The position numbers and the translations under genes were made by a program. Shown in pieces: positions 12,231-32,338 of a stretch of DNA of 38,345 nt; position 1 is the stretch's first letter, and each line of letters opens with the position of its first letter. Source of the DNA: Pseudomonadota bacterium (lineage in GTDB: Bacteria; Pseudomonadota; Alphaproteobacteria; Micropepsales; Micropepsaceae); the NCBI GenBank assembly GCA_018242105.1, contig JAFECP010000002.1, positions 30,396 to 68,740 of the forward strand, read 5' to 3'. The notes below the pieces were generated by a model that saw nothing but the letters and a program-made list of their open reading frames with translations, did no database searches and was not told the origin of the DNA.

Positions 12231-12261
12231 ATTTTTCACGAAAGCTGTGCGGATTCCGGTC

Positions 12262-12453: not shown

Positions 12454-12975
12454 ATGGAAACGCAGGCGCTCGGTTTCGTATTGGAGACGTCGCCACGCCG
12501 CCAGAACCATCTCGATCATTGCGAAGAGGTGTTGCGGTCGCCATCGAACCCGCAGGCTCTATCCCTCATCGAGATGTGGGAGAATTTGAAGCCCCGCGGC
12601 GGCATGACTATCGGGCGGCATTTTCCTTCACGCAAATTCGCCGGGCTGCTTCCCAATGTCCTCCTTCTGGAGAGAATTGAATGCGCGCGCGATTTTCGCG
12701 TCCGGCTCGCCGGCTTTGGCATGCTCTGCTTTTATGGCTTCGACCCGAGCGGGCGGCGTCTGGGGGAGTTCTACCAAGGCGAAAAGCACGAAGCGCGCTG
12801 GTTCTCCCTGAATGCTGTGCTGCGTGGCCGCCCGCGTGTGACGCTATCGCGCCTGTCGCAAAGCGGCGAAACGGTCCTGCAGCGCGAAATTGTGGCGCTC
12901 CCGGTTCTTGCATCCGACGCGCTGACGCCGCTGGTTTTGGTTGCCTCGTTCTGGAGCCGCCACTGGCTCAACTAA
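12454..12975 (+). CDS. PAS_5 (PF07310-like) domain protein
   Basis: This 173-residue protein fits the alphaproteobacterial PAS_5 family: ALSLIEMWENLKPRGGMTIG, then FAGLLPNVLLLERIECARDF, RVRLAGFGMLCFYGFDPSGR, and a C-terminal half ending in LPVLASDALTPLVLVASFW. Family members are single PAS-like sensory domains without an attached output domain, so it probably binds a ligand or partner protein; its function is uncharacterised. The ATG at 12454 is chosen because the upstream open frame lacks family sequence. About 220 bases separate it from the previous gene, so it is likely transcribed alone. Confidence 0.8.
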   Translation: METQALGFVLETSPRRQNHLDHCEEVLRSPSNPQALSLIEMWENLKPRGGMTIGRHFPSRKFAGLLPNVLLLERIECARDFRVRLAGFGMLCFYGFDPSGRRLGEFYQGEKHEARWFSLNAVLRGRPRVTLSRLSQSGETVLQREIVALPVLASDALTPLVLVASFWSRHWLN

Positions 12976-13035
12976 CCGGCATTTTCTATCGCCGCCGGGT
13001 GGGCTAGCGTTCGCGCTTCATCGCGCGAGGATATT

Positions 13036-13974: not shown

Positions 13975-14028
13975 GAAACTCCCGCGTTCGGCGCGGTATA
14001 AGGGCGAAGACCCAAACCGGAAACTGCC

Positions 14029-15117
14029 ATGTCTCAACTCTTCTCCGAATTCCACATCAAAGGCGTGGCCCTTCGCAATCGCATCGTGGTCTCGCCCATG
14101 TGCCAATACTCGGCGGTCGATGGGGTGCCGAACGAATGGCACATGGTGCATCTGGGCGCGCGGGCGATAGGCGGCGCTGCGCTTGTGATCGCCGAAGCGA
14201 CAGCGGTCTCGCCGGAAGGGCGCATTACGCCAGGCTGCACCGGCCTTTGGAATGACAAGCAGGCCGAAGCCTGGGCGCCGATCATGCGGTTCATCAAGAA
14301 GCAGGGCGCTGTGCCGGGAATCCAGATCGCTCATGCCGGTCGCAAGGCGAGCGCGAACCGGCCATGGGAAGGCGACGATCACATGAACCCGGATGATCCG
14401 CGCGCCTGGGACCCGTTGGGGCCGTCACCCATTGCATTCGGCGCCAATCTGCCGCGCGCGCCAAAGGAGATGACCAAGGACGAAATCCTCCGTGTGCAGA
14501 GCGATTTCGTGGCCGCCGCGAAACGCGCGCTGGCAATGGGCGCCGAATGGCTGGAACTGCATTTTGCACATGGCTATCTGGCGCAAAGCTTCTTCTCGCC
14601 CATCGCCAACAGGCGCACCGACGAATATGGCGGCAGCTTCGAGAACCGCGCGCGCTTTTTGATCGACACGATGAAGGCCGTGCGCGCGATCTGGCCGGAG
14701 AAATATCCGCTCACCGTCCGTTTCGGCGTCAGCGATTTCCATGCGGACGGCCAGCCGCTCGAAGAATCCATTGCGATGGTGAAGATGTTCAAGAACCACC
14801 ACCTCGATCTGATCGACATCAGTCTCGGTTTCAACACGCCGGATATTTCCGCCGTGCCGTGGGGGCCGGGCTTTCTTGCGCCGATTGCCGAGCGCATCAA
14901 GAAAGAAGCGGGCATCCTCACCGCCGTCGGCTGGCTCATCAACGATCCGCAACTGGCCGAAGACATCATCGCCAAGGGGCAGGCGAACCTCATCATGCTC
15001 GCGCACAAGGAGTTGGACGACCCGCATTTCCCCTTTCATGCCGCCAAAGCGCTGAGTGTCGAGAATCCGCAGAACGTGCTGCCGCCGCAATATGCTTTTT
15101 GGCTGAAGGGGCGATAA
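14029..15117 (+). CDS. NADH:flavin oxidoreductase, Old Yellow Enzyme (YqjM-like)
   Basis: This 362-residue FMN-dependent ene-reductase of the thermophilic-like/YqjM class has VVSPMCQYSAVDG (the Cys that tunes FMN), QIAHAGRKAS, ELHFAHGYLAQSFFSP (the H-x-x-H pair that binds the substrate carbonyl), and RRTDEYGGSFENR. It reduces activated C=C bonds of enones or nitro compounds, or serves in redox defence. Cytoplasmic. Its stop overlaps the acetyltransferase start (TAATG), which suggests one operon. Physiological substrate unknown. Confidence 0.93.
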   Translation: MSQLFSEFHIKGVALRNRIVVSPMCQYSAVDGVPNEWHMVHLGARAIGGAALVIAEATAVSPEGRITPGCTGLWNDKQAEAWAPIMRFIKKQGAVPGIQIAHAGRKASANRPWEGDDHMNPDDPRAWDPLGPSPIAFGANLPRAPKEMTKDEILRVQSDFVAAAKRALAMGAEWLELHFAHGYLAQSFFSPIANRRTDEYGGSFENRARFLIDTMKAVRAIWPEKYPLTVRFGVSDFHADGQPLEESIAMVKMFKNHHLDLIDISLGFNTPDISAVPWGPGFLAPIAERIKKEAGILTAVGWLINDPQLAEDIIAKGQANLIMLAHKELDDPHFPFHAAKALSVENPQNVLPPQYAFWLKGR

Positions 15118-15542
15118 TGCCGACGGTGCGGATGTTGCGGGCAGACGAGGACGCGCTGCTCGCCTGCGCTGTCCCCGATGTTTTCGACCACGCGGTGCGG
15201 CCCGATCTGGTGCGGGAATTCCTGTCCGATCCACGCCATCATATAGCGGTTGCGCTGGAGGGGGAGGCGATCGTTGGCTTCGTCTCGGCTGTCCACTATG
15301 TCCATCCCGACAAACCGGCGGAGCTTTGGATTAATGAAGTCGGCGTGGCATCAAGCCACCGCAAGCGCGGTCTTGCGAAGGAGATGATGCAGACCATGCT
15401 CGTGCATGGTCGGGCGCTGGGCTGCGAGGTGGCATGGGTGCTGACGGATACGGAAAACGCCGCCGCCCGCACGCTTTATGCTTCGGTGGGCGGCGAAGAA
15501 CTCTCGCAGAACACGGTACATGTTGAGTTCAAGCTGATGTGA
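15117..15542 (+). CDS. GNAT-family N-acetyltransferase
   Basis: This 141-residue GCN5-related acetyltransferase starts at the ATG at 15117, which overlaps the upstream stop by one base. It has the acetyl-CoA pyrophosphate loop in EVGVASSHRKRGLAKEMM, then AWVLTDTENAAARTLYASVGG, typical of motif B. The small size and motif spacing resemble aminoglycoside 3-N-acetyltransferase-type (AacA/RimI-like) members, but no resistance function should be assumed. Probably co-transcribed with the ene-reductase. Confidence 0.88.
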   Translation: MPTVRMLRADEDALLACAVPDVFDHAVRPDLVREFLSDPRHHIAVALEGEAIVGFVSAVHYVHPDKPAELWINEVGVASSHRKRGLAKEMMQTMLVHGRALGCEVAWVLTDTENAAARTLYASVGGEELSQNTVHVEFKLM

Positions 15543-15563
15543 CCGGCTATTGGAAGACAAACG

Positions 15564-16163
15564 TTATGCCTTCACCAATCCCTCTTCCGCCATTGCTTTG
15601 TGCACGGCCGGTCGTTGCGAAACGGCGTGAAAGAATTTGTGCAGGTTCTCCGGCAGATCGATCTTCACATGATGAGCCCATGTCGTCATCACGAAGAGAT
15701 AAGCATCCGCCACGGTGAAGGTGCCGCCTGTGAGGAATTGCTTTCCGGAGAGTTCGCCGTTCACATAGTTGAAGCGCTTTACGACTTTGTCTCTGGCATC
15801 GGATTTCACATCCTCGGATGCGTTGCCGAATAACGGCCCGAAATTCTTGTGTATTTCACCGTTGATGAAGGTGAGCCACTCCGCGACTTTGTAGCGGCCG
15901 AACCCGGCGGACGGGATCAAGCCCGTTTCGGGCTTTAAGTCCGCCAGATACTGAACGATGGCCGGACCTTCGGTCAGCATGCTGCCGTCGTCCAGTTGCA
16001 GCGCCGGCACATAGCCTTTCGGGTTGATCTTGAAGAAATCTTCGCCACTGTCGAGCTTGTGTGTTTTCAGATCGACCTTCACCAACTCCAGCGGAAGGCC
16101 TGCCTCATTGGCGACGATATGTGGCGAGAGCGAGCAGGCGCCCGGCGAGTAGTAGAGTTTCAT
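15564..16163 (-). CDS. Glutathione S-transferase (beta class)
   Basis: This 199-residue protein starts MKLYYSPGACSLSPHI with Cys10, the residue typical of bacterial beta-class GSTs. The N-terminal thioredoxin-like domain includes NPKGYVPAL (cis-Pro) and LTEGPAIVQYLAD (glutathione-binding), followed by an all-helical domain with FTVADAYLFVMTTW. It conjugates or reduces electrophiles or peroxides using glutathione. It follows the CPBP protease gene on the same strand after about 106 bases with no clear shared operon signal. Confidence 0.93.
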   Translation of the reverse strand: MKLYYSPGACSLSPHIVANEAGLPLELVKVDLKTHKLDSGEDFFKINPKGYVPALQLDDGSMLTEGPAIVQYLADLKPETGLIPSAGFGRYKVAEWLTFINGEIHKNFGPLFGNASEDVKSDARDKVVKRFNYVNGELSGKQFLTGGTFTVADAYLFVMTTWAHHVKIDLPENLHKFFHAVSQRPAVHKAMAEEGLVKA

Positions 16164-16269
16164 GGAAGTTCCTCTTCTGATGGCGAGACACTATTTGAGA
16201 GGGTAACGTGTATCTGTGCAATCCGTTCTAAGGCGGTGATCTCTCTGCAAGGGAAGGTATTTATCGGCC

Positions 16270-17004
16270 TCAGAAATGTCCGCCGGTAACAGCGTAAAGC
16301 AGCAGCCATGGTTCTATGACGATGTCGATGGTGGCGTGGGCGATGATGGTTGGCGTCAGGCTGCGGCCACTGGCGAGATAGGTGATCGCCAGCATCAGGC
16401 CGAGAACTCCGGTTGCCGCCATCGCGCCGATCAACTGCGCTATCTGAACGTGGCCGCTCAGGCCGCCCCATCCCATATGCGCCAGCCCGAACAGGATAGC
16501 GGAGAGAAGGATCTGTACCGTCCAGTGTGCGCCGCCATCGGCGGCTTGCGTCATGACGAACCCGCGAAATACCGCTTCCTCGCAAATGCCCGCCGAGATG
16601 CCGATACCGAGCGCGACAAGAATGCGAAAGAGAGACCAGTCGGTGAAGATGGGCGCGCCAGCATGCATCATTTGCATCGCCGTGAAGCCCGCGTAGAGAA
16701 CGCCAAACACGAAGCCCAGCAGCCAGCCCCATATCGAGGACGACACCTTCCAGCCGATGCTTTGCAAATTCTGACCGCGCAACTGCAGGATGAGATAGGT
16801 GGCGCCGAACAGGAGCCAGACAAGGACGATGCTATTGATCGCAGTGACGGCGACCTTGTCGTGGGGCGTCACGATTGACAGATGCGGCACGATGGCCAAC
16901 CGCGCCACGGGCAACAGAAACTCGAGGATCGCGAAGGCCACGATCATCAGCCCGATCGCCGCCCAGGGCCCGATCCGTGCCGGTTTTATCGGTTCTGCGT
17001 CCAT
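16270..17004 (-). CDS. CPBP-family intramembrane metalloprotease (Abi/CAAX-like)
   Basis: This 244-residue polytopic membrane protein is of the CPBP (Abi, CAAX-processing-like) family. The catalytic motifs are present: ICEEAVFRGFV (EExxxR), FGLAHMG (FxxxH) and IIAHATIDI (HxxxD), set among hydrophobic segments. Bacterial members cut or process membrane proteins or confer bacteriocin immunity; the substrate here is unknown. The start at 17004 has GGAGGGA in correct position. An ATG at 17016 overlaps that site and is less likely. Divergent from the TVP38-like gene. Confidence 0.88.
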   Translation of the reverse strand: MDAEPIKPARIGPWAAIGLMIVAFAILEFLLPVARLAIVPHLSIVTPHDKVAVTAINSIVLVWLLFGATYLILQLRGQNLQSIGWKVSSSIWGWLLGFVFGVLYAGFTAMQMMHAGAPIFTDWSLFRILVALGIGISAGICEEAVFRGFVMTQAADGGAHWTVQILLSAILFGLAHMGWGGLSGHVQIAQLIGAMAATGVLGLMLAITYLASGRSLTPTIIAHATIDIVIEPWLLLYAVTGGHF

Positions 17005-17113
17005 ATTTCCCTCCATTCCCCGTGCAACATGGGCCGTTCCACGTTAACAAAATCAGCAAAGCACGGCGAACGGCGTTCGGATAGGTTCGCGGCGCTATTT
17101 TGGGTTCTATTCG

Positions 17114-17779
17114 GTGACCAAGAATATCCTTCGCGGACTTGCTTTGCTGGCTATCGTGGCCGGTATCGTTCTAGGCGTGGTCTATCGCCACGACATTCAT
17201 CCGCTGACGATTCGCAACATGATCGCGGGTAACCCGTGGGCGCCCGCGATTTTCATTGGGTTGCAGATCACGGCGAGTCTGCTTTGGGTGCCGCGTACCG
17301 TGCTGGGGCTGGCCGCGGGATTGCTGTTCGGAATCGCGTGGGGGCTGGTGTGGGCAATCGTCGGCGCAACATTGGGCGCAGCCGCTGGGTTTGGCTTTGC
17401 GCGCTGGATGGGCAGCGAAGGCGTTCTCGACCATTCGCCGCGCATCGGGCGATTGATCCAGCGCGCGGAACGTGGTGGCTGGCGCGCAGTGGCGATTTTG
17501 CGCCTGATCCCCGGACCGCCGCACAGCGCCATCAACACATTGCTCGCGCTGACAGAACTGTCGTGGCGCGATTACCTGATTGGATCATTCATCGGCATGT
17601 TGCCGATCACCTTTGTCCAGGTGGAGATCGGTGCGTCGGGCAGCGCGGTATTCGCGGGCGAGAGCGGTTGGCTGATCGGTTGCGTTGCGCTTGCGCTTGG
17701 ACTGGCCGGGTCCTTCCTGCTGAAACGGGTGGGGCGCAGGGCTGGAATGGACGAGTCCGACACAGGCGCGAGCGCCTAG
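17114..17779 (+). CDS. TVP38/TMEM64 (DedA-superfamily) membrane protein
   Basis: This 221-residue integral membrane protein has a GTG start. It has an N-terminal hydrophobic helix ([19 protein letters not shown]), a re-entrant-type region [20 protein letters not shown], then [16 protein letters not shown] and [19 protein letters not shown], typical of SNARE-associated/VTT domains. Such proteins are thought to scramble phospholipids or carry lipid-linked intermediates; no substrate is known here. Its TAG stop shares the CTAG at 17776-17779 with the cysK stop from the opposite strand. Confidence 0.87.
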
Positions 17780-18738
17780 CCAATGCCCTCAAACAGCGCT
17801 GTCGAAAGATAGCGCTCCGCAAAGGAGGGAATGATCGCCACGATCGTCTTGCCTTCCATACCAGGCCGCGCGCCGACTTCCAGCGCACCGGCAATCGCCG
17901 CGCCGGATGAAATGCCGACAGGGATACCTTCTTCGCGCGCTACGCGGCGGGCCATGTCGAAGGCCGTCTCATTGCCGATGGTGATCACTTCGTCGATCAC
18001 CTTGCGATCGAGGATCGACGGCACGAAGCCGGCGCCGATGCCTTGAATGGGGTGCGGGCCGGGTTGGCCGCCGGAGAGCACCGGGGAGTCTTCAGGCTCC
18101 AACGCGATGATCTTCACGCCGGGCTTCTTCTGCTTCAGCACCTGGCCGACGCCGGTGATTGTGCCGCCGGTGCCGACGCCGGAAATGACCACATCGACCT
18201 TACCGCCGGTATCGTTCCAGATTTCTTCCGCCGTGGTGCGGCGATGGATGTCGGGGTTGGCGGGATTCTCGAATTGCTGCGGGATGACCGCGCCCGGCGT
18301 GCTGGCCACGATCTCCTGCGCTTTCGCGATGGCGCCGCGCATGCCCTTCGGAGACTCCGTCAAAACGATCTCCGCGCCGAGCAGCGCGATCATCTTGCGG
18401 CGCTCCGTCGAAACCGATTCCGGCATGACGACGATGAGCTTGTAGCCTTTGGCGGCGGCAGCGAAGGCGAGGGCGATGCCGGTGTTTCCGCTGGTGGGTT
18501 CGACAAGTGTGGATTTTCCAGGGGAAATGATTTTCTGCGCCTCCAGCGCATCTATCATCGAAACGCCGATGCGGTCTTTGACGCTGGAAATCGGATTGAA
18601 GAATTCGAGCTTGAGCAGAACGTCGGCCTTCACACCGGCTTCCTTCGTCATGCGGTGCAAACGCACCAGTGGCGTATCGCCGATCGTGTCGGTGATGGAA
18701 TTGAAGATGCGTCCGCGGCCGGGTTTGCGGTCTGCCAT
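17776..18738 (-). CDS. cysK: Cysteine synthase A (O-acetylserine sulfhydrylase)
   Basis: This 320-residue PLP enzyme makes L-cysteine from O-acetylserine and sulfide. It has [12 protein letters not shown] with the PLP-binding Lys54, [11 protein letters not shown] (substrate loop), [13 protein letters not shown] (phosphate loop) and a C-terminal [11 protein letters not shown]. The start at 18738 has AGGAG seven bases upstream; the longer upstream frame lacks family similarity. It is the last gene of an apparent coaBC-dut-rrf2-cysK operon, 13 bases behind the Rrf2 regulator. The stop sits within a CTAG shared with the convergent gene. Confidence 0.94.
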
Positions 18739-20876: not shown

Positions 20877-20972
20877 GATCCAACCCTTTGCCGGGAAAAT
20901 CCCGCGATGAAGGGGAGTTTATAACGAATAACGAGTGCGAAGTGTAGTTCTTTGCGCCAGGGAGCTAATGTC

Positions 20973-22850
20973 ATGAATATACAGGTGAAATCTGAACTTC
21001 CACCATTTAAGCCGCTGCCGCAGAAGGCTCCGGACATCGAAGTCCAGCGAAAGCCCGACGGCACGGTGTATATCCGCTCGAACCACAAACTGGGTCAGAT
21101 GCCACGTTCCATCGCGCATCTGTTCGAGGAAAAGGCGGCGCAGCACCCGGATCGCAACTTCATTGGTCAGCGCCAGATGTTGCCGGACGGCAAAACCGGC
21201 GACTGGAAATACATCACCTATGGCGATGCCAATGCGCGTGCGAACGCAGTCGCGCAGGCATTGCTCAATCGCGGCCTCGGCCCCGACAAGCCCTTGATGG
21301 TGCTGTCCGGCAATTCCATTCCGCATGCCATCATGATGCTCGGCGCGATGAAGGCGCGCGTGCCGATTGCGCCGGTGAGCGTCGCTTATTCCCTGATGAG
21401 CGGCGATCACTCCAAGCTGAAGCATGTCTTCGAGATCACAAAGCCGAAGATGATCTTCGCGGAGCAGGGGCCAATGTATGCTCGTGCTTTGGCGGCGCTG
21501 CCGCTGGACGGTGTGGATGTCGTGACCGTCACGCCGATTCCGGATCGCCAAACCACAGCCTATGATGATCTGACCAAAACGAATGTGTCGAACGATGTTG
21601 CCGCATCGGTCGATAAGGTGAACCACGACACAGTAGCGAAATATCTCTTCACCTCCGGCTCCACTGGCATGCCCAAGGGTGTGATCCAGACGCATGGCAT
21701 GATGTGCGCGACGATTGCGGCCAGTGAAGGCTTGCGCGTCGAAGATCCCGACCCGAATGAGATTCCGCAGAGTCTCGAATGGATGCCGTGGAACCATATC
21801 TCCGCCGGCAATATCGGCTTCAACGGCAACATCAATGCCGGCGGTACGGTGCATTTGGATATGGGGAAGCCGATCCCCGGCATGTTCGACGAGACGATCC
21901 GCAATTTGCGCGAAATCTCGCCTCTGGTGTTCGGCTCCGCGCCGATTGCGTTCGGTTGGCTGGCCGATGCGATGGAGCGCGATCCGGAGTTACGCGACAA
22001 TTTCTTCAAGAAGATGCGTTACGTCGGCTACGGCGGGGCAACATTGAGCCAGGACATCTATGAGCGCATCCAATCGCTGTCGATCGCGTCCACCGGCATG
22101 CGCATTCCGCTCACCACCATGTATGGCGCAACGGAAACGCAGGGTGTGACCGTAGTGCACTGGCTTACCGAACGGGTAGGCCTCATCGGCCTGCCGCTGC
22201 CGGGCATTACGCTGAAGCTGGTGCCGAACGGCCAGAAATACGAAGTGCGTGTGAAAGGCCCGACAGTGACGCCAGGCTATCACAACCGTCCCGATCTCAC
22301 GGCCAAAGTGTTCGACGAAGAGGGTTATTACAGCCTTGGCGATGCCGCTAAGTTCCTGGACGAGAACGATCCCGCGCAAGGCCTCGTCTTCGATGGCCGC
22401 GTGACGGAGGACTTCAAGCTCGATAGCGGCACATGGGTTTCGGTCGGCACGCTGCGCGCGCAGGCGGTCGGCGCCGCGTCGCCGTTGATTCAGGACTGTA
22501 TCGTGTGCGGACAGGACAAGCCGTTCGTCGGCATCCTTGCGTGGCCGATCATTTCGGTGGCGAAAGAGATCGCCGGAGATGCGTCGCTGTCCGGCCCGGA
22601 CGCCATCGTTGCGGCGCCGAAGGTGCGCGAATTCGTGCAGAAGCATTTCGCAGCGCATAATAAAGATTGCGGCGGGTCTTCGGGCCGGATCAAGCGCGTG
22701 ATCCTGATGACCGAGCCGCCTTCGGTCGATGGGCATGAGATCACCGACAAGGGCTATGTGAACCAGCGCGCGACGATGGATCGCCGCGCCGATCTGGTCG
22801 CCAAGCTTTACCAGAACCCGCCACCGCCCGAGGCGATCGAAATCCCGTGA
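20973..22850 (+). CDS. Acyl-CoA synthetase, feruloyl-CoA-synthase-like
   Basis: This 625-residue adenylate-forming enzyme activates a carboxylic acid with ATP and joins it to CoA. Core motifs are LFTSGSTGMPKGVIQTHG (A3), TTMYGATETQG (A5), SLGDAAK (A7) and EITDKGYVNQRA, carrying the C-terminal catalytic Lys region. The last motif, the run from LPLPGITLKLVPNG to GPTVTPGYHNRPDL, and VTEDFKLDSGTWVSVGTLRA are features I associate with feruloyl-CoA synthase rather than fatty-acid ligases. Aromatic acids such as ferulate or caffeate are therefore plausible substrates, unproven here. The start at 20973 has GGGAG upstream. The next gene overlaps by GTGA. Confidence 0.85.
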   Translation: MNIQVKSELPPFKPLPQKAPDIEVQRKPDGTVYIRSNHKLGQMPRSIAHLFEEKAAQHPDRNFIGQRQMLPDGKTGDWKYITYGDANARANAVAQALLNRGLGPDKPLMVLSGNSIPHAIMMLGAMKARVPIAPVSVAYSLMSGDHSKLKHVFEITKPKMIFAEQGPMYARALAALPLDGVDVVTVTPIPDRQTTAYDDLTKTNVSNDVAASVDKVNHDTVAKYLFTSGSTGMPKGVIQTHGMMCATIAASEGLRVEDPDPNEIPQSLEWMPWNHISAGNIGFNGNINAGGTVHLDMGKPIPGMFDETIRNLREISPLVFGSAPIAFGWLADAMERDPELRDNFFKKMRYVGYGGATLSQDIYERIQSLSIASTGMRIPLTTMYGATETQGVTVVHWLTERVGLIGLPLPGITLKLVPNGQKYEVRVKGPTVTPGYHNRPDLTAKVFDEEGYYSLGDAAKFLDENDPAQGLVFDGRVTEDFKLDSGTWVSVGTLRAQAVGAASPLIQDCIVCGQDKPFVGILAWPIISVAKEIAGDASLSGPDAIVAAPKVREFVQKHFAAHNKDCGGSSGRIKRVILMTEPPSVDGHEITDKGYVNQRATMDRRADLVAKLYQNPPPPEAIEIP

Positions 22851-23716: not shown

Positions 23717-24655
23717 ATGCCTCTCGATCCCGTTCTGAAAGCCTTTCTCGATCAGGTTGCTTCCATGGGTGGCCCAAAGACATGGGAGATGCACCCCAGT
23801 GAGGCACGCGAAGCATTTGCAGGGCTTATGCAGCTCGCTGGGCCGAAAGACATCCCCATCGGCAGGGTCGCTAATGTCATCATTCCCACCGCGAATGGAG
23901 AAATCACTGCGCGCAGCTATGCTGCGGTGGCGTCGGGAGGCGAACCGATGCCGACCCTCGTATTCTTCCATGGCGGCGGCTGGGTGATCGGCAGTGTCGA
24001 TACGCATGATGGATTGTGCCGCATGATCGCGAACGGTTCAGCATGCCGTGTGATCTCTGTGGATTACTGTCTGTCGCCTGAGAGCAAATTTCCCGGCCCT
24101 GTCGATGAGGCCGTTGCCGCTGTTGAATGGATCGAAAAGAACGCCGCGCAACTTGGCGTGGACGCGAACCGGCTTGCAGTTGGCGGCGACTCCGCGGGCG
24201 GTGCGCTCGCGGCAGTGGTAACGCAGGCCGCGAAAGCGAAAGGCGGTCCCAAGCTGGCCTTCCAGCTTCTATTCTTCCCAGTGACCCAGATCGGCAATGA
24301 GACCGCTTCGCTGCGCGAATATGCGGAAGGCTATTTCCTGGAACGCAAAACGCTGGACTGGTTCTACGCGAACTATCTGCCAGCCGGCGCTGACAGGAAA
24401 GATCCGCGCATCTCGCCGCTCGCGGCGGCTGATGTATCGGGCTTACCGCCCGCCTATGTTATGCTTGCAGGGTTCGATCCACTGCATGATGAAGGTCTGC
24501 AATATGCCGAAAGGCTGCGCGCGGCCGGTGTGCCTGTGACCGTCGCAGATTATTCCGATATGGTGCATGACTTCATCTATCTGCAAGCAGTTTTACCGCA
24601 GGCAGCCGATGCGTTGAACTCTGCCGCGAAGGCGCTGAAAACCGCGCTCAGCTAG
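23717..24655 (+). CDS. Alpha/beta hydrolase, HSL/acetyl-esterase family
   Basis: This 312-residue esterase/lipase of the hormone-sensitive-lipase-like (family IV) group has the oxyanion-hole motif FFHGGGWVIGS and the nucleophile GGDSAGGALAA. The acid is in AGFDPLHDEG and the catalytic His in DMVHDFIYL. Such enzymes cleave short- to medium-chain esters. Cytoplasmic, with no signal peptide. It overlaps the convergent AGPS-like gene by 8 bases at the 3' ends. It may form an operon with the CoA ligase group upstream. Confidence 0.92.
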   Translation: MPLDPVLKAFLDQVASMGGPKTWEMHPSEAREAFAGLMQLAGPKDIPIGRVANVIIPTANGEITARSYAAVASGGEPMPTLVFFHGGGWVIGSVDTHDGLCRMIANGSACRVISVDYCLSPESKFPGPVDEAVAAVEWIEKNAAQLGVDANRLAVGGDSAGGALAAVVTQAAKAKGGPKLAFQLLFFPVTQIGNETASLREYAEGYFLERKTLDWFYANYLPAGADRKDPRISPLAAADVSGLPPAYVMLAGFDPLHDEGLQYAERLRAAGVPVTVADYSDMVHDFIYLQAVLPQAADALNSAAKALKTALS

Positions 24656-26321
24656 GGATAAGCTTGCCCGGATTGAGAATGCCTTTCGGATCAAGTGCCG
24701 TCTTGATCGCGCGCAGCACATCTACACCAAGTGCGCCTTTTTCCTGAACGATCCAGGGCAGATGATCCTCGCCCACGCCATGGTGATGGCTGATGGTGCC
24801 GCCATGCGCGACAATAGCATCGGTTGCTGCTCGCTTGATCGCCAGCCATTGCGCAACGTCGCCGTCCAGCGCGCGTGGGAAGATGTAAGTGAAATAGAGA
24901 CTCGCGCCATTTGGGTAAGAATGGCTGATATGACAAGCGACAATGCCGCGCGCGCCGGGACGCGGGGCAGTTTCACGGATCGTGTTTTCCAATGCGCTTT
25001 TTACGGCGGCATAGAGTGCATCGATTTTCGACCAGCTTGTCGCGGTTTCCAGTGTATCCACGCCAAGGCCGCGATCCATCATCGGTTCGCGCAAATAGGG
25101 GCCGTGAAAGCGGCCTTGATGCCAGCGCTTGCCGGCGCTGTCGCCGATCGCCATCGCGCCGAACTGTTTGGCGATTTCGCTGAAGCGTTTGCGCGAGCGT
25201 TCGACCGTAGCCGCATCACCTTCAAACCCGGCTATCATCGCGACGGCCGTGTCGCCGAATTTGCGGTAGTGCAATATAGCGTCTGCAATACGGCTACCGA
25301 AGCTCTTTCGCTTTCCGGCAGCGCCATAGGCTCGGTAAAAGCGAGTCTCTTCCGCATCGGATAGGCGCAGCATCGCGGCGGGCACGCCTTCCTGTACCGC
25401 TTTGCGGATCGCGGCAGCGCCATTGGCGAAATCGTGGAAGAGGAAGCCGGTATAGACGCTCGCTTCGGGGGCGGGTTGAACATGCACCGTCGCTTCGGTG
25501 ATCACGCCGAACGCGCCTTCCGAGCCGAGTATCAGATCGGTCAGGCGTGGACCGGCGGATGAGGCCGGGAAATCTTCCGTAACGAGCAAGCCGCGCGGCG
25601 TGGCAAGCTTGGCGGATACCAGCCAGTCGTTCGCCCGGCCATAGCGGCTGGATTGCTGCCCCGCACCACGATGCGCGATCCAGCCGCCGAGCGTGGAGAA
25701 TTCGAAGCTTTGCGGATAATGGCCGAGCACCACGTTTTGCGCGCGCAATGCCTTGTCGAGTGTGGGGCCATAAATGCCCGCTTCTGCGGTTGCCGTTTCG
25801 GACTTGCCGTCGATGCCGATCAGGCGATCCGTGCCGGACATATCCAGCGAGACGGCGGCTTTGAAATCCTCCGCCGTGCCCGTGACGCTGCCCACCACGC
25901 TTGTGCCGCCACCGAAGGGGACGATGGCGATTCCGTTGTCCGAGGCGAAGGACAGGACTGACAGAACCTCTTCCGTGCCGCGCGGATAGAGGACAGCGTC
26001 CGGCGCGGTTGAAAGATTGCCGGCGCGCAGATGCAGAAGATCGTGATAGGAGCGGCCGCGTGCGTGGAAAGCGCGCTCGAAATGATCGTCGCGCACGCGA
26101 TCTTCGCCGAGTATTTGCGCGAAATGCGCGCGTTCAGACGGACTGAGTCGTGATGGGGCAAGCGCGATGTCGTCGAGAGGGCGCGCCGGTGTGGCCAGAA
26201 GGCTGGGCATGCCAAGCTCATCGGCCAGCCAGGACCATGCCGCCTCGTTGGCGGCGACATCATCCTTGTGGGCGGTCCAGCCCCAGCCGTTCCAGCTAAT
26301 CTTTTTGCGATCGATGCTCAT
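24648..26321 (-). CDS. FAD-linked oxidase, alkyl-DHAP synthase (AGPS)-like
   Basis: This 557-residue flavoprotein belongs to the FAD_binding_4 / AGPS group. The N-terminus has KISWNGWGWTAHKDD, matching the WNGWG signature of alkyldihydroxyacetonephosphate synthase. PFGGGTSVVGSV binds FAD. The C-terminal part has CHISHSYPNGASLYFTYIF (Tyr in the active-site region) and GTISHHHGVGEDHLPWI (the HHHGVG motif of AGPS). In eukaryotes AGPS swaps the acyl chain of acyl-DHAP for a fatty alcohol to make the ether-lipid precursor. Whether this protein does so is unknown. It is third in the glpD-dgk-AGPS operon, 17 bases behind the kinase gene. Confidence 0.87.
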   Translation of the reverse strand: MSIDRKKISWNGWGWTAHKDDVAANEAAWSWLADELGMPSLLATPARPLDDIALAPSRLSPSERAHFAQILGEDRVRDDHFERAFHARGRSYHDLLHLRAGNLSTAPDAVLYPRGTEEVLSVLSFASDNGIAIVPFGGGTSVVGSVTGTAEDFKAAVSLDMSGTDRLIGIDGKSETATAEAGIYGPTLDKALRAQNVVLGHYPQSFEFSTLGGWIAHRGAGQQSSRYGRANDWLVSAKLATPRGLLVTEDFPASSAGPRLTDLILGSEGAFGVITEATVHVQPAPEASVYTGFLFHDFANGAAAIRKAVQEGVPAAMLRLSDAEETRFYRAYGAAGKRKSFGSRIADAILHYRKFGDTAVAMIAGFEGDAATVERSRKRFSEIAKQFGAMAIGDSAGKRWHQGRFHGPYLREPMMDRGLGVDTLETATSWSKIDALYAAVKSALENTIRETAPRPGARGIVACHISHSYPNGASLYFTYIFPRALDGDVAQWLAIKRAATDAIVAHGGTISHHHGVGEDHLPWIVQEKGALGVDVLRAIKTALDPKGILNPGKLIPS

Positions 26322-26338
26322 GGGGCCACGCTAGCAGA

Positions 26339-27277
26339 TCAGCATCGTAAATTGAGCGCGCGGGGCAGGATTTCCAATGTTGCTGGTAAACGGCCTGCGC
26401 TTTCACCGTCCACCTCCACAAGAACGGGATGTCCGCCCGTCTCGGCTACCGGCACGGCAACCACGCGAGCGCCACGCAAGGCCCGCACCGCAGGGTTGTT
26501 CAAGTGCTCGCCCGTATAGATAAGCTTCATGTTCGCCGCCGCGCGGCTTTTGGGGCTGCCACCCATCACGATGACGTCAAAAACACCGTCGTCGGGCCGT
26601 GCGTTGGGCGCGACCTTCATGCCGCCGCCGAAATAAAGACCGTTGGCGACAGCGACGGTAGATATGCTCGTGATCTCATCGAACGCTCCATCCACCCGGA
26701 TGCGCACGGCACGCTCGCGATAGCGCAGCAAGCCGAACAAGCTGTGGAACGCAAATGCGAACTGCCCGCCGAACAGCTTGGCGATGCGGGCGCGGTTCAC
26801 CGAATCCACAATCAACCCCGACATGCCGAAAGATGCGATGTTGATGAAGTAGCGCACCACCGGCTCGCCCTTGCGCGACAGGCAAGAGACCCGGCCGACG
26901 TCGATCATGCGCGTCTTTGCGTTTTTCAACCTCGCGATGGCGGCACTGTGACCTGGCGCGATTCCGAAGGTCTTGCGGAAATCGCCCCCGGTGCCGCTGG
27001 TCACGAAGGCGAACACGGCGTCGGGCGAGATCGGACCGCTTTCGACAAAAAAGCCGTTGACCGCTTCGTTTATCGTGCCGTCGCCTCCGACCGCAACGAT
27101 TTCGGAACAGCCTTCAAGCAAGGCTTCGCGCACCCGCGCCGTTGCTTCGCCGCGCCGCCGTGTCATGACAACGGACATGTTCGGATAGGCGTCGCGCAAG
27201 GCCCGCTCGATAGCTGGCCATTCGCGCCGCGTGCGTCCGCCGCCGGATCGCGGGTTGACGACAACGAAAGCGCTCAT
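26339..27277 (-). CDS. Diacylglycerol-kinase-family lipid kinase (YegS/BmrU-like)
   Basis: This 312-residue DAGK_cat-family kinase has FVVVNPRSGGG (N-terminal nucleotide loop), IVAVGGDGTINEAVNGFF (the GGDGT catalytic loop), SGTGGDFRKTF, a beta-rich C-terminal domain with VANGLYFGGGMKVAP, and VEVDGESAG near the end. It probably phosphorylates diacylglycerol or a related lipid alcohol with ATP at the membrane. It overlaps the glpD stop by ATGA, so the genes are co-translated. Neighbouring glpD and AGPS-like genes suggest a lipid with a glycerol-derived backbone as substrate. Confidence 0.92.
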   Translation of the reverse strand: MSAFVVVNPRSGGGRTRREWPAIERALRDAYPNMSVVMTRRRGEATARVREALLEGCSEIVAVGGDGTINEAVNGFFVESGPISPDAVFAFVTSGTGGDFRKTFGIAPGHSAAIARLKNAKTRMIDVGRVSCLSRKGEPVVRYFINIASFGMSGLIVDSVNRARIAKLFGGQFAFAFHSLFGLLRYRERAVRIRVDGAFDEITSISTVAVANGLYFGGGMKVAPNARPDDGVFDVIVMGGSPKSRAAANMKLIYTGEHLNNPAVRALRGARVVAVPVAETGGHPVLVEVDGESAGRLPATLEILPRALNLRC

Positions 27278-28905
27278 TGAGGAGCCGTGGTGAGTTGGAA
27301 ATTGCGCTGCACCTTTGTGAGTTCGCTTTTCTTTCGCGCGTCATCCCAGCCGAGTTCGGAGGCCATGAGTTCCGCAACGCGTGCGAGCCTGGCATCGCCC
27401 GGATTGCCGAGCTGGCCGATGCCCGTGCGCCGCATGACGACGTCGTCGAGGGTGAGCGCGGCTTCTTCCCGGACGGCGAACAGGACTTGCGCGCCAATGT
27501 CGCCGGATTCGGACAGCGCTTCGCGCAGATCCGGCCGGCCGCCGCCGATGGCAAGAACCTCGCGCGAGCGTGTGCCATATAACCGCGCCAGATGATCGAT
27601 ATTTGGCACCGGATCGTGTTCGGCTTCCATCTGCTTCTTGAAGACGGCGAAACGCGGGATATTGCCGCTTGGCATAGGCGATGTCTGCGTGGAACAGGGT
27701 TTGGTTTTGACGCCGAGCTTTTCGACAAGCGTATCGACGGCCTTCTGTGCAAGGTCGCGCGATGTCGTCCATTTGCCGCCGATGGCCGAGAACAGGCCGT
27801 TCAGGCCATCGTCTTTCGAATGATCGACGAGTTCGGCGCGGCGGCTGGCGTCATAGGTATCGCCTGAGCCATCATCCACAAGCGGTCGCAAGCCTGCGTA
27901 CCAGTGTTGCACTTTCGCGCGCGACAGTTGCGCGGAGGGCAAGTTGGCATTGATGAAGGCGAGGAAATCATCAATGTCGGATTCCGTCACGCCCACATCG
28001 TCCGGCTTGCTGCGGAACGCTGTGTCCGTCGTGCCGAGCAGCGAATGGCCGCGCCATGGCAGCACGAAGAAGTGCCCACCGCCTGCCGCGACTGTAAGCG
28101 CGTCCTGCTTTGTCATCGATGGAACAAGCAGATGAATGCCTTTGGCGCGCAAAAGCTTATGCGTCGCCGGCTTGCCCAGCGCCTGTGCAAGGAAGATGTC
28201 GGCCCAAGGGCCGGCTGCGAGCAATGTCGTCTTCGCGCGGATGTCGAAATTGGCATCACCGGGAAGGTCGTGCGCCTTGGCGCCTTCGACCGCGCCATTA
28301 CGGATCAGGAGTCCATCCGCGGCGACATGGTTCGCCGCGGCCCCGCCATGCGCGACAGCGTCGAGGATGCACTCGAACGCCAGCCGCTCTGGCGCGTACA
28401 TTTGTGCATCGTAGTATAGGAAGGCACCTTCAAGGCCCGGTCCCGCGAGAGACGGTTCGCGAGCCGTCGCATCTTTTGCATTCAAAAAGGAATGGCCTGG
28501 CAGGCGCTGATCCGGGTCGTCCAGCCAACTGCGGTCGTAAGACAGCAGATCGTAAAGCGTGAGGCCTGCGGTAAGCGTCGTGCGGCCTTTGAAACCGGCA
28601 CTGTGGAGTGGAATGAGGAAGGGCAGCGGCTGCACCAGATGCGGCGCGGTGCGCTGCCAGATGCGCCGTTCGCGCAGGGACTCGCGCACCAGTCCAAGTT
28701 CGAAATTGCGCAGATAGCGCAACCCGCCATGGATGAGCTTGGAATTGTGGGCGCTGGTGGCATGAGCGAAATCGTTCTTTTCGATCAGCGCGACTTTGAG
28801 CCCGCGCAGGCTGGCATCGCGCGCCACGCAAGCGCCTGTGATCCCGCCGCCGATGACCAGCAGGTCGAAAACCTCGTTGGAAAGGGAGTTCAAATCTCGG
28901 CGCAT
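27274..28905 (-). CDS. glpD: FAD-dependent glycerol-3-phosphate dehydrogenase
   Basis: This 543-residue flavoprotein oxidises sn-glycerol-3-phosphate to DHAP at the membrane, passing electrons to quinone. The FAD motif is LLVIGGGITGACVARDASLR and the family mark HNSKLIHGGLRYLRNFE follows. The central LLRAKGIHLLVPS and HSLLGTTDTAF are typical of GlpD, and a C-terminal domain of about 120 residues is present. The gene leads an operon with a lipid-kinase gene (4-base overlap) and an AGPS-like gene; no glpF or glpK is seen nearby. That setting suggests its DHAP product may feed lipid synthesis rather than glycerol catabolism. It is divergent from the hydrolase pair with 69 bases between starts. 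Confidence 0.93.
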   Translation of the reverse strand: MRRDLNSLSNEVFDLLVIGGGITGACVARDASLRGLKVALIEKNDFAHATSAHNSKLIHGGLRYLRNFELGLVRESLRERRIWQRTAPHLVQPLPFLIPLHSAGFKGRTTLTAGLTLYDLLSYDRSWLDDPDQRLPGHSFLNAKDATAREPSLAGPGLEGAFLYYDAQMYAPERLAFECILDAVAHGGAAANHVAADGLLIRNGAVEGAKAHDLPGDANFDIRAKTTLLAAGPWADIFLAQALGKPATHKLLRAKGIHLLVPSMTKQDALTVAAGGGHFFVLPWRGHSLLGTTDTAFRSKPDDVGVTESDIDDFLAFINANLPSAQLSRAKVQHWYAGLRPLVDDGSGDTYDASRRAELVDHSKDDGLNGLFSAIGGKWTTSRDLAQKAVDTLVEKLGVKTKPCSTQTSPMPSGNIPRFAVFKKQMEAEHDPVPNIDHLARLYGTRSREVLAIGGGRPDLREALSESGDIGAQVLFAVREEAALTLDDVVMRRTGIGQLGNPGDARLARVAELMASELGWDDARKKSELTKVQRNFQLTTAPQ

Positions 28906-28935
28906 TTGGGCTTGGTGGACGGCACGGAAGCTCTG

Positions 28936-28947
28936 CTAGGCTTGCCT
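28936..28947. promoter_or_regulatory. Short inverted repeat in glpD/hydrolase divergent region
   Basis: TAGGC-TT-GCCTA is a 12-base perfect inverted repeat in the 69-base gap between the glpD start (28905) and the hydrolase start (28975). Its position fits an operator affecting both directions, but the repeat is short and could be chance. Confidence 0.25.
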
Positions 28948-28974
28948 ACAGACAACAAAACTGGGGGGCGGGCA

Positions 28975-29880
28975 ATGCCGCAGGTCAAAGCCAACGGAAT
29001 CAATATCGAATATGAAAGCTTCGGGCGGGCGAGCGATCCGGCGCTTCTGTTGATCATGGGCTTTTCCGCCCAAATGACGATGTGGCCAACGGCGCTGTGC
29101 AAAGGGTTGGCGGCCAAGGGCTTCCGGGTGATCCGCTTCGATAATCGCGACATTGGACTATCCAGCCACCTTTCCCAGTTCGGCGCACCCAATATTGGCG
29201 AGGCGATGATGAAGGCGATGAGTGGACAGCCGGTCGATGCGCCCTATCTGCTGGACGACATGGCAAAAGACACCGTCGGCCTGCTCGACGCGCTGGGAAT
29301 CCAGCACGCGCACATTGTGGGTGCGTCCATGGGCGGCATGATCGCGCAGATCGTGGCCGCAAAATATCCCGAGCACACCATCAGCTTGACCTCGATCATG
29401 TCCACCACCGGCCGCCGCGATCTTCCGCAGGCCAAGCCGGAGGCGATGGCAGCCTTGACCACGCCGCCCGCCAGCGACAGCCGCGAAGACCGCATTGCGC
29501 AGGGCATGAAAACCTGGCGCGTGATTGGCAGTCCGCGCTTCGCGGCAACGGACGAAGAACTGCGTGCGACTGTGGTAGCCGCGGTTGACCGTTCGCCCTA
29601 TGATCCTGCTGGTATCGGCCGCCAGCTTCTTGCGATCATGGCCTCGCCGCCGCGCAATGACATCCTGAAGAATGTGAGAGCGCCCGCACAGGTAATCCAT
29701 GGCGAAGCCGACCCGCTGGTGCCAATGGAAGGCGGCAAGGACACCGCAGGCTCCATTCCCGGTGCGAAGCTACACCTGGTCCCCGGCATGGCGCATGACT
29801 TCACAAACGCGTTGGTGCCGGTCTATCTCAGATTGATCGGCGACTTTGTGCAGGGCGTCGAGAAGGTGAAAGCCGCATGA
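28975..29880 (+). CDS. Alpha/beta hydrolase, tandem copy 1
   Basis: This 301-residue cytoplasmic alpha/beta-hydrolase-fold protein has a nucleophile elbow GASMGGMIAQ (Ser), an acid in HGEADPLVP, and His in PGMAHDF. The N-terminal LLLIMGFSAQMTMWP provides the oxyanion region, and FRVIRFDNRDIGLSS follows. It closely resembles the following gene, so a duplication is likely. The ATG at 28975 is preceded by a G-rich ribosome-binding stretch (GGGGGG); an upstream extension lies in the glpD start region. Ester or lactone substrate unknown. Confidence 0.9.
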   Translation: MPQVKANGINIEYESFGRASDPALLLIMGFSAQMTMWPTALCKGLAAKGFRVIRFDNRDIGLSSHLSQFGAPNIGEAMMKAMSGQPVDAPYLLDDMAKDTVGLLDALGIQHAHIVGASMGGMIAQIVAAKYPEHTISLTSIMSTTGRRDLPQAKPEAMAALTTPPASDSREDRIAQGMKTWRVIGSPRFAATDEELRATVVAAVDRSPYDPAGIGRQLLAIMASPPRNDILKNVRAPAQVIHGEADPLVPMEGGKDTAGSIPGAKLHLVPGMAHDFTNALVPVYLRLIGDFVQGVEKVKAA

Positions 29881-30773
29881 AAATCCGCGCGAACGGCATT
29901 GAGATCGAATATGACGAGGCAGGCCCGAAAGATGGCACGCCGCTGCTGATGATCCAGGGCTTCGGCTCGCAGATGACGAGCTGGCCCATTGAGTTCTTCA
30001 ACATGCTGGCCGGTTCCGGGTTGCGTGTGATCCGTTTCGACAATCGCGATGTCGGGCTCACGCAGAAATGGGATGGGGTTTTCCCGAAAACCGAGAACAT
30101 CATCGAGGCGCTGAAAGCCGGCCGCAGACCGGATGTTCCCTATACTTTGGCGGATATGGCGGGCGATGCCGCGGGGCTTTTGGAAGAGCTGGGCATTGAG
30201 AGCGCTCATATCGCGGGCGCCAGTATGGGCGGGATGATCGCGCAGCTTGTAGCGCTCGATCATCCCAAGAAGGCGCGCTCGCTGATTTCCATCTTTTCCA
30301 CGACCTCAGACCCTTCACTGCCGCGCTCTGCCCCGGAAGCGCAGGCAGCGCTGATGGCGCGGCCGGAGAACAACGAACGATCCACCGTCATCGCCCATTC
30401 ATTGAAAGGGCGGCGGGCCTATGCCTCGACCAAATGGCCGTTCGACGAGAAGCGGTTGGCCGAACTGATCGGGCAGTCCTACGACCGGTCGTTCTATCCG
30501 GAAGGAACGTTGCGCCAGTGGTCGGCGATCATGGCCAGCCCGCCGCGGACGGAGCGGCTGAAATCGCTCCAGGCGCCATCGCTGGTTTTGCACGGCTCAT
30601 CGGACACGCTCATCCCGCCTGCCGCTGGACGGCATACGGCGCAATGCATCCCTGACGCCGAGCATCATGAGATCGAAGGTTGGGGGCACGACCTCCCGTT
30701 GGAAGTTATCCCGATCCTGCAGGATCTCATTGTGCCTTTCATCCGGCGTGTGGAAGCGGGTAGGGCGAAATAG
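29877..30773 (+). CDS. Alpha/beta hydrolase, tandem copy 2
   Basis: This 298-residue paralogue of the upstream gene shares LLMIQGFGSQMTSWP, LRVIRFDNRDVGLTQKWDG, the GASMGGMIAQL nucleophile elbow, LVLHGSSDTLIPP and IEGWGHDLP (catalytic His). The start overlaps the previous stop by ATGA. The two copies differ in the cap region, so substrate choice may differ. It is followed by a hairpin terminator at 30790-30817 and converges on rpmG. Confidence 0.9.
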   Translation: MKIRANGIEIEYDEAGPKDGTPLLMIQGFGSQMTSWPIEFFNMLAGSGLRVIRFDNRDVGLTQKWDGVFPKTENIIEALKAGRRPDVPYTLADMAGDAAGLLEELGIESAHIAGASMGGMIAQLVALDHPKKARSLISIFSTTSDPSLPRSAPEAQAALMARPENNERSTVIAHSLKGRRAYASTKWPFDEKRLAELIGQSYDRSFYPEGTLRQWSAIMASPPRTERLKSLQAPSLVLHGSSDTLIPPAAGRHTAQCIPDAEHHEIEGWGHDLPLEVIPILQDLIVPFIRRVEAGRAK

Positions 30774-31249: not shown

Positions 31250-32338
31250 TTGGGAGCTTCTTCCAATTTTGCACTGCTGAAGGACTTCGCCGAGGAGATC
31301 TCCAGCGACAAACGCCGGGAATTGCTACGGCAAGCGACAGACGTGTTCCTCGCCGAAGGCCGTGCCATGTCGCCCGCGGACATGGCAGCGCTCGATGAGG
31401 TCGTGCAGAGTGTCGCATCCGACCTTTCCACGGAAGTTCGCGCCGAGCTATCGCGCAAGATTTCGGCGGCGCCTATTCCCTTCACGCGAACGGCGCGCAA
31501 GCTGGCGATGGACGACATCGAGATTGCGCGGCCGGTTCTCGAACATTCCCGGGCGCTCACCCAGAACGACTTGCTCGATGTGATCGCGCATAAATCGTCC
31601 GACCACATGATGGCGGTGACGCGCCGTGACGATATCGGCGAGACGGTGTCGAGCGCACTGGTCGAACGCGGCGAGGACAGGGTCGTCGTTTCGCTGCTGG
31701 AAAATCCCACAGCCCGGATCAGCGAGGCGACTTACGAACGTGTGGCTGAGCGCGCGGAAACCAGCACCACGTTGCAGGCGCCGCTAGTGCGCCGCGAAAA
31801 CGTGCCGCTACATCTTCTGAGCGATATTTATCTGAAGGTGGAAGCGAACCTGCGCCGGGAGATACTGAGCAGGTATCAGGGCGTTCTGCCATCCGAGCTT
31901 GAGGCTGCATTCGAGCGCAGCCGAAACCGTGTTTCTAAGGCTTATGGCGCATTGCCTGACGATTTTGACGCAGCCCGCCGAGAAGTTGAAGGAATGGCGC
32001 AGCACGGCACATTGTTGCCGCCGGCGCTCATTTCCCTGTTGCGGCAGGGGCCGGCGAAACGCACGGCGTTCATATTTGCTTTCGCCAGGCTCACCGACAT
32101 CAACTATGAACTGGTGGACCGGCTTGTTGTTGACGCCGATCTGGATGCCCTGGCGATGCTCTGCCGGGCCGCCGGTTTCGACCGCGCTCTGTTCGTGACA
32201 TTGGCGATGCTCATCATCGGCAAGGATGCGCCCATGGGGCGCGTGAAGGAATTCGGCGAGGTTTATAACGGTGTGCCACTCGGAGCTGCGCAGCGCGCCA
32301 TTCGTTTCTGGAAAGTTCGCGCGAAGCTATCGGCCTAG
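31250..32338 (+). CDS. DUF2336-family protein
   Basis: This 362-residue largely helical protein of the DUF2336 family, common in Alphaproteobacteria, shows features such as LLKDFAEEISSDKRRELLRQ, TDVFLAEGRAM, DDIEIARPVLEHSRALTQND and IAHKSSDHMMAVTRR, resembling HEAT-like repeats. Function unknown. No ATG is available: the frame is closed upstream by a stop at 31211-31213, and the first usable codon is the TTG at 31250, with a weak ribosome-binding site. ATGs at 31210 and 31236 lie in other frames. Its TAG stop overlaps the NUDIX stop (CTAG at 32335-32338). Confidence 0.8.
   Translation: MGASSNFALLKDFAEEISSDKRRELLRQATDVFLAEGRAMSPADMAALDEVVQSVASDLSTEVRAELSRKISAAPIPFTRTARKLAMDDIEIARPVLEHSRALTQNDLLDVIAHKSSDHMMAVTRRDDIGETVSSALVERGEDRVVVSLLENPTARISEATYERVAERAETSTTLQAPLVRRENVPLHLLSDIYLKVEANLRREILSRYQGVLPSELEAAFERSRNRVSKAYGALPDDFDAARREVEGMAQHGTLLPPALISLLRQGPAKRTAFIFAFARLTDINYELVDRLVVDADLDALAMLCRAAGFDRALFVTLAMLIIGKDAPMGRVKEFGEVYNGVPLGAAQRAIRFWKVRAKLSA

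What the first reader, a model, noticed from the sequence alone, without database searches (positions are those of the whole stretch)
24648..28905. glpD - lipid kinase - AGPS-like operon: candidate glycerol-phosphate/ether-lipid module
Seen: three minus-strand genes in tight series (ATGA overlap, then 17 bases) encode glycerol-3-phosphate dehydrogenase, a DAGK-family kinase and a flavoprotein with the AGPS signatures WNGWG, PFGGGTSVVG and HHHGVG. Known: AGPS makes alkyl-DHAP in ether-lipid synthesis. I recall a similar grouping (glpD1, AGPS-like, DAG kinase) in mycobacteria near Rv2249c-Rv2252, which suggests a module conserved across phyla. Inference: DHAP from GlpD could feed an ether or otherwise modified glycerolipid, with the kinase phosphorylating a lipid intermediate. 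No acyl-DHAP acyltransferase is encoded in the window, so the chemistry may differ from the eukaryotic route.
Basis: partly seen in the sequence, partly recalled or inferred. Interest (0 to 1): 0.65.

Follow-up and report, generated by a model that had tools for sequence, protein, structure and literature searches.

The report
Bacterial kinase–GlpD–AGPS ether-lipid operon
Three neighbouring bacterial genes encode a lipid kinase, a glycerol-phosphate dehydrogenase and a close relative of the enzyme that makes ether lipids in animals; they recur together across many phyla, probably to take ether-type glycerol lipids apart rather than to build them, a route not described in bacteria in the papers I could search.

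Summary
The third protein is a true AGPS homologue, not a glycolate or D-lactate oxidase: best PDB matches are Dictyostelium and guinea-pig AGPS (351 and 266 bits, against 109 for D-lactate dehydrogenase); the model matches mammalian AGPS at Z 43 over the whole length; the three catalytic residues (R319, R411, Y476) are conserved throughout 80 relatives. AGPS has GlpD within 2.5 kb in 56 of 80 loci from about ten phyla, in four arrangements, with several GlpD lineages and either a lipid kinase or an FGGY kinase. In an even sample of 144 Alphaproteobacteria, 7 of 8 genomes with this AGPS type have glpD about 1 kb upstream. No FAR, GNPAT-like or ElbD partner was found. GlpD works in the oxidative direction, and in several alphaproteobacterial families conserved esterases and lipases flank the trio. 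I favour a salvage/catabolic order: kinase, GlpD, then AGPS cleaving the sn-1 ether to DHAP plus alcohol. Co-assembly is shown; direction and substrate are inferred.

The parts
27274..28905 (-). GlpD: FAD-dependent glycerol-3-phosphate dehydrogenase, first gene of the operon, the only GlpD found in this genome
   Evidence: Pfam DAO/DAO_C; model matches E. coli GlpD-DHAP complex 2r4e at Z 42.8; residues aligned to E. coli H50, R54, Y55, H233, R317, R332, K354 kept; single DAO_C match in the genome
26339..27277 (-). YegS/Rv2252/BmrU-family lipid kinase (DAGK_cat + YegS_C), start overlaps the GlpD stop (ATGA)
   Evidence: TIGR00147 133.6 bits, above its cut-off of 118.65; DgkB 2qv7 79 bits; junction
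24648..26321 (-). AGPS (alkyl-DHAP synthase) homologue with intact catalytic set R319, R411, Y476 and H512-H514
28906..28974 (.). 69-base divergent intergenic region between glpD and the first flanking hydrolase; likely shared promoter region (inference)
   Evidence: start positions
28975..29880 (+). alpha/beta hydrolase 1 (esterase-like), divergent from glpD; ORF begins upstream at 28492 but homology begins here
   Evidence: Abhydrolase_1 73 bits; conserved in this position in other Alphaproteobacteria
29877..30773 (+). alpha/beta hydrolase 2 (esterase-like)
   Evidence: Abhydrolase_1 83 bits
23717..24655 (+). LipP1-type hormone-sensitive lipase family hydrolase, convergent with AGPS (8-base overlap)
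   Evidence: NF058653 365 bits, above cut-off 350; conserved flank
20952..22850 (+). acyl-CoA synthetase (PRK12582 type), wider flank; membership in the pathway uncertain
   Evidence: 942 bits, cut-off 777; present near the trio in several other Alphaproteobacteria

Best explanation
A three-enzyme module for ether-type (possibly also acyl) glycerolipids, most likely running in the salvage/catabolic direction. Proposed order: flanking esterases deacylate the glycerolipid to a 1-O-alkylglycerol; the kinase phosphorylates the free sn-3 hydroxyl; GlpD oxidises carbon 2 to give 1-O-alkyl-DHAP and passes electrons to quinone; AGPS forms its flavin-DHAP adduct, expels the alcohol and hydrates the adduct, releasing DHAP plus a long-chain alcohol. 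Shown here: the three families, an intact AGPS catalytic set, conserved linkage of AGPS with GlpD and a kinase by several separate assemblies, conserved hydrolase flanks in Alphaproteobacteria, and no FAR/GNPAT/ElbD-type partner found in this genome. Inferred: the direction, the alkylglycerol substrate, GlpD acting on an alkylated substrate, and water as acceptor in the AGPS step. GlpD is also the only GlpD found here and the genome has a GlpK, so it probably serves ordinary glycerol use as well.
For: AGPS identity and intact catalytic residues (residues from PMC3509576). Linkage in 56 of 80 loci and in 7 of 8 genomes of an even class sample. Linked GlpDs come from several clades and kinases from two unrelated families, so the kinase + GlpD + AGPS combination was put together more than once. 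Partners are a kinase and a GlpD (oxidising, quinone-linked: PMC11962113), not FAR/GNPAT/reductase as in the M. xanthus AGPS operon (PMC9131029). No strong FAR in this genome; PlsC-type acyltransferases only in frames of 244-301 aa; FAR C-terminal domain over cut-off in 3 of 26 AGPS genomes. Esterases and a lipase flank the trio in several alphaproteobacterial families at about 52% AGPS identity. E. coli, which makes no ether lipids (general knowledge), has an AGPS-type protein with an FGGY kinase related to those beside AGPS-GlpD, in a cluster with transporters.
Against: AGPS is characterised only in the synthetic direction and I found no paper showing net ether cleavage by it. The M. tuberculosis kinase of this family is reported to act on diacylglycerol (PMC3229680). 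GlpD keeps the canonical active-site residues, so nothing in the sequence proves a larger substrate. Hydrolase flanks are confined to Alphaproteobacteria and belong to common families. A bacterial fatty alcohol source other than FAR1-type enzymes would have been missed.
Confidence: 0.5

Rival explanations
1. Biosynthesis: AGPS makes alkyl-DHAP from acyl-DHAP and a fatty alcohol, GlpD supplies DHAP or helps balance DHAP and G3P, and the kinase phosphorylates alkyl(acyl)glycerol for membrane ether lipids.
For: AGPS is known as a synthase; the M. xanthus homologue contributes, though to a minor degree, to ether lipids (PMC9131029). Catalytic residues match those of the eukaryotic synthases. Nannocystis and Desulfobacterota, some of which belong to groups with ether lipids, carry the module.
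Against: No FAR1-type, GNPAT-like or ElbD-type partner found in this genome and none in the operon; DHAP needs no dedicated GlpD; GlpD oxidises while the pathway needs a reduction of alkyl-DHAP; Actinobacteria and E. coli with AGPS-type genes are not known ether-lipid makers (general knowledge).
Confidence: 0.22
2. Turnover or remodelling of ordinary acylglycerols: the kinase makes (lyso)phosphatidic acid from mono- or diacylglycerol, GlpD recycles G3P, and AGPS exchanges or removes the acyl group of acyl-DHAP, with no ether involved.
For: Kinase family members act on diacylglycerol (PMC3229680); lipases and an acyl-CoA synthetase flank the trio; AGPS takes acyl-DHAP as first substrate (PMC3509576).
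Against: Plain esterases would do the same job, so the specialised AGPS flavin chemistry would be unnecessary; no known acyl-DHAP route in these bacteria.
Confidence: 0.15
3. The AGPS-like protein has left AGPS chemistry altogether and is an ordinary FAD dehydrogenase or oxidase; the linkage with GlpD reflects general glycerol-phosphate metabolism.
For: GlpD is the genome's only GlpD and GlpK is encoded elsewhere (L093), so general glycerol use must run through this GlpD.
Against: The AGPS catalytic residues are conserved in all relatives that cover them, the model matches AGPS better than D-lactate dehydrogenase and over its N-terminal part too, and GlpD linkage occurs in several arrangements with different GlpD lineages.
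Confidence: 0.08

Closest known systems
Alkylglycerone-phosphate (alkyl-DHAP) synthase, AGPS/ADPS, EC 2.5.1.26 (Dictyostelium 2uuu, guinea pig 4bby)
   Same: Sequence (351 and 266 bits), whole-length fold (Z 39.6-43), catalytic Arg/Arg/Tyr and His motif
   Different: No peroxisomal partner enzymes; encoded with a kinase and GlpD; direction of reaction unknown
M. xanthus AGPS operon MXAN_1676-1674 (PMC9131029)
   Same: Bacterial AGPS in a three-gene operon
   Different: There the partners are a FAR/GNPAT-like protein and an NAD-dependent protein; here a lipid kinase and GlpD
Mycobacterial glpD1 - AGPS-like - DAG kinase grouping (Rv2249c-Rv2252)
   Different: Gene order and GlpD lineage differ; not fetched from Mycobacterium itself; M. 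tuberculosis also has a separate agpS, Rv3107c (PMC4928086)
E. coli ygcU-ygcE cluster
   Same: AGPS catalytic set plus a kinase plus a putative dehydrogenase
   Different: YgcU is only 28% identical to the window AGPS; FGGY kinase and SDR in place of DAGK and GlpD; function unknown
Alkylglycerol monooxygenase (AGMO)
   Same: Would achieve a similar outcome, breaking the glycerol ether bond
   Different: Unrelated enzyme using oxygen and tetrahydrobiopterin; described as the only known enzyme for alkylglycerol breakdown (PMC7911779)

Membership tests
AGPS / alkyl-DHAP synthase | Sequence closer to AGPS than to glycolate, D-lactate or other FAD-oxidase_C enzymes | tested here: met
   351 and 266 bits to AGPS against 109 to D-lactate dehydrogenase; tree support 99-100 against the genome's GlcD paralogues
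AGPS / alkyl-DHAP synthase | Catalytic Arg, Arg, Tyr (Dictyostelium R352, R447, Y508) and His motif | tested here: met
   R319, R411, Y476, H512-H514 (residues from PMC3509576)
AGPS / alkyl-DHAP synthase | AGPS fold over the whole chain including the N-terminal part | tested here: met
   Z 43.0, 541 residues aligned, model 1-555
AGPS / alkyl-DHAP synthase | Exchange of acyl for alkyl on acyl-DHAP | not testable with these tools
   needs enzyme assay
GlpD (aerobic G3P dehydrogenase) | DAO and DAO_C domains and conserved active-site residues | tested here: met
   NCBIfam equivalog cut-offs for GlpD not reached (295 of 360 bits)
YegS/Rv2252/BmrU lipid kinase (TIGR00147) | Score above the family cut-off | tested here: met
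   133.6 bits against 118.65; substrate not testable
Eukaryote-like or Elb ether-lipid biosynthesis pathway | FAR1-type fatty acyl-CoA reductase in the genome | tested here: not met
   best NAD_binding_4 match 30 bits, typical of general SDR relatives; genome 93.7% complete
Eukaryote-like or Elb ether-lipid biosynthesis pathway | GNPAT-like or ElbD-type acyltransferase | tested here: inconclusive
   three PlsC-type matches in frames of 244-301 aa, none ElbD-sized; substrate cannot be told
Mycobacterial Rv2249c-Rv2252 type grouping | glpD, AGPS-like and DAGK genes linked | tested here: met
   Linked in the window and in Nocardia, Nocardioides and Brevibacterium; the Mycobacterium locus itself was not fetched

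The most novel reading that the evidence does not exclude
A widespread bacterial pathway, found in about ten phyla, that breaks glycerol-ether bonds without a monooxygenase: phosphorylate the alkylglycerol, oxidise it with a GlpD, then use AGPS in the cleaving direction to give DHAP and an alcohol; the lipid-kinase and FGGY-kinase versions would handle lipid and soluble ethers.
Probability: 0.4. Interest if true: 0.85.

Novelty: new variant of a known kind. Interest (0 to 1): 0.6.

Why it matters
AGMO is described as the only known enzyme for alkylglycerol breakdown (PMC7911779), yet alkyl glycerol lipids are widespread. A conserved kinase-GlpD-AGPS operon would give bacteria a route to salvage or consume them, and would mean that AGPS genes cannot be read as proof of ether-lipid synthesis, as is done when metagenomes are screened for ether-lipid producers (PMC11868695). 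It also offers a testable function for the E. coli ygcU/ygcE cluster.

Tried and rejected
Glycolate/D-lactate oxidase identity for the AGPS protein: rejected. One dedicated AGPS-linked GlpD subfamily: not supported; linked GlpDs fall into several clades and holding the unlinked ones together is disfavoured, p-AU 0.02, quick tree with long branches. Active-site-near changes in the DAGK-type GlpD clade (E. coli Y358 to S, L355 to W, I255 to H, V256 to F) were noted, but pocket size could not be judged because no coordinates are given out. Whether the five AGPS-like alphaproteobacterial genes without adjacent GlpD are anabolic: the neighbours checked gave no FAR or acyltransferase; unresolved. 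Papers holding bacterial AGPS, operon and glycerol-3-phosphate dehydrogenase together: none found. The E. coli GlpD structure paper (PMC2265192) is not held. Two papers on Rv2252 found only citations or a summary.

Full report
Observation. The three minus-strand ORFs are at the stated coordinates and tightly packed: GlpD 27274-28905, kinase 26339-27277 (ATGA overlap with the GlpD stop), AGPS 24648-26321 (17-base gap). Pfam and NCBIfam give DAO/DAO_C, DAGK_cat/YegS_C (TIGR00147 above cut-off) and FAD_binding_4/FAD-oxidase_C. The nearest relative found is a Rhizomicrobium metagenome-assembled genome (AGPS 88% identical), so the window is alphaproteobacterial.

AGPS identity. Best PDB matches are Dictyostelium ADPS (351 bits) and guinea-pig AGPS (266 bits); D-lactate dehydrogenase follows at 109 bits. 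A review names R352, R447 and Y508 of the Dictyostelium enzyme as important for catalysis (PMC3509576). I fixed the residue offset (+3) from the alignment; these then fall on window R319, R411 and Y476. The two Arg are present in all 80 relatives and the Tyr in all 79 that cover it, while the genome's own GlcD-type paralogues differ. An AlphaFold model (pLDDT 89) matches mammalian AGPS at Z 43.0 over residues 1-555; D-lactate dehydrogenase matches at 35.4 and only from residue 59. Trees separate all AGPS homologues, eukaryotic ones included, from the GlcD paralogues with support 99-100. I call it an AGPS family member by sequence, fold and residues; activity is untested.

Co-occurrence. Of 80 loci fetched by AGPS similarity, 56 have a GlpD within 2.5 kb and 41 have both GlpD and a DAGK. 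Layouts: GlpD-DAGK-AGPS in 25, AGPS-GlpD in 15, divergent GlpD with AGPS-DAGK in 9 (Nocardia, Nocardioides), GlpD-AGPS-DAGK in Brevibacterium. They cover Alphaproteobacteria, Lysobacterales, Nannocystaceae, Hydrogenedentes, Actinobacteria, Acidobacteria, Sericytochromatia, Deltaproteobacteria/Desulfobacterota, Chloroflexi, Clostridiales and Neomarinimicrobiota by record title. To avoid selection by the query I also searched an even sample of 144 alphaproteobacterial genomes for AGPS and for GlpD: 8 genomes hold this AGPS type (785 bits or more) and in 7 of them glpD lies about 1 kb upstream on the same strand, leaving room for the kinase; the exception, G068, has its GlpDs elsewhere, the nearer about 54 kb away. 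In 19 of 26 AGPS genomes only one GlpD was found; in the Actinobacteria and Nannocystis genomes checked, the AGPS-linked GlpD is one of two.

Separate assembly. AGPS-linked GlpDs do not form one clade. The DAGK-type set, the actinobacterial set and most of the FGGY-type/other set are each one side of a branch with support 100, with unlinked GlpDs between them (quick tree, several long branches). The kinase also differs: in 7 loci from several phyla an FGGY kinase adjoins AGPS or GlpD or lies nearby; the four scanned in NCBIfam score best to XylB but below its cut-off, and far below the GlpK cut-offs. Joining AGPS to a GlpD and a kinase more than once, from different parts, is the strongest argument that they act on one pathway.

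Direction. Inference starts here. Ether-lipid synthesis through AGPS needs an acyl-DHAP acyltransferase, a fatty alcohol source and a reductase; the M. xanthus AGPS operon has a FAR/GNPAT-like protein and an NAD-dependent protein (PMC9131029). Here the partners are a kinase and a quinone-linked dehydrogenase. The genome shows no strong FAR domain (best 30 bits) and only stand-alone PlsC-type acyltransferases; the FAR C-terminal domain passes its cut-off in 3 of 26 AGPS genomes. In the window the trio lies between two esterase-like hydrolases, the first starting 69 bases away on the divergent side, and a LipP1-type lipase on the convergent side, with an acyl-CoA synthetase beyond. Much of this wider set recurs in other alphaproteobacterial families where AGPS is only about 52% identical (L130-L132). 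Kinase, then oxidation of carbon 2, then AGPS acting on alkyl-DHAP would give DHAP and an alcohol. The AGPS mechanism goes through a flavin-DHAP adduct (PMC3509576), so water in place of a fatty alcohol is chemically plausible, but I found no paper that shows it.

E. coli parallel. YgcU of E. coli K-12 carries the full AGPS catalytic set, and YgcE is closer to the FGGY kinases beside AGPS-GlpD (240 bits) than to this genome's GlpK (77 bits). They sit with a putative dehydrogenase, two putative transporters and putative flavoproteins; the divergent ygcW/yqcE promoter is a predicted CRP target (PMC3105977; PMC1794230). As E. coli makes no ether lipids (general knowledge), AGPS-type enzymes appear to occur outside ether-lipid synthesis.

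Limits. GlpD is the only one found in this genome and a GlpK is encoded elsewhere (GlpK named by its sequence, not scored against a family), so it probably also oxidises ordinary G3P. The M. tuberculosis kinase of this family is reported to act on diacylglycerol (PMC3229680). The flank evidence is confined to Alphaproteobacteria. The genome is 93.7% complete. No lipid or enzyme data exist here. Searches of the open-access library found no description of this operon, but most subscription papers are not held.

Verdict.

Noticed in passing
L134 (E. coli K-12 NC_000913.3, 2885000-2912000), locus 9197-18375: The uncharacterised ygcP-ygcE cluster holds an AGPS-type protein (YgcU) with all AGPS catalytic residues and an FGGY kinase (YgcE) related to kinases beside AGPS-GlpD in other phyla.
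   Followed up: partly
window 27274-28905 (GlpD): The DAGK-linked GlpD clade carries fixed substitutions near the active site (E. coli Y358 to S, L355 to W, I255 to H, V256 to F) while keeping the catalytic residues; FGGY-linked GlpDs mostly have Y358 to F.
   Followed up: partly
L124-L128: A second AGPS-like family in Alphaproteobacteria (435-463 bits) keeps the catalytic residues but has no adjacent GlpD or kinase and forms its own clade with a Polyangia protein.
   Followed up: partly
L037, L039, L041, L048: In a Hydrogenedentes clade the AGPS gene directly follows genes that look like hisF, hisI, trpE and trpG instead of glpD.
   Followed up: no
window 31250-32338 and L093 272-1423: A protein weakly like NCBIfam SpbR (115 bits, cut-off 400) lies beyond the hydrolases; what looks by eye like a relative of it lies beside glpK elsewhere in the genome.
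   Followed up: no
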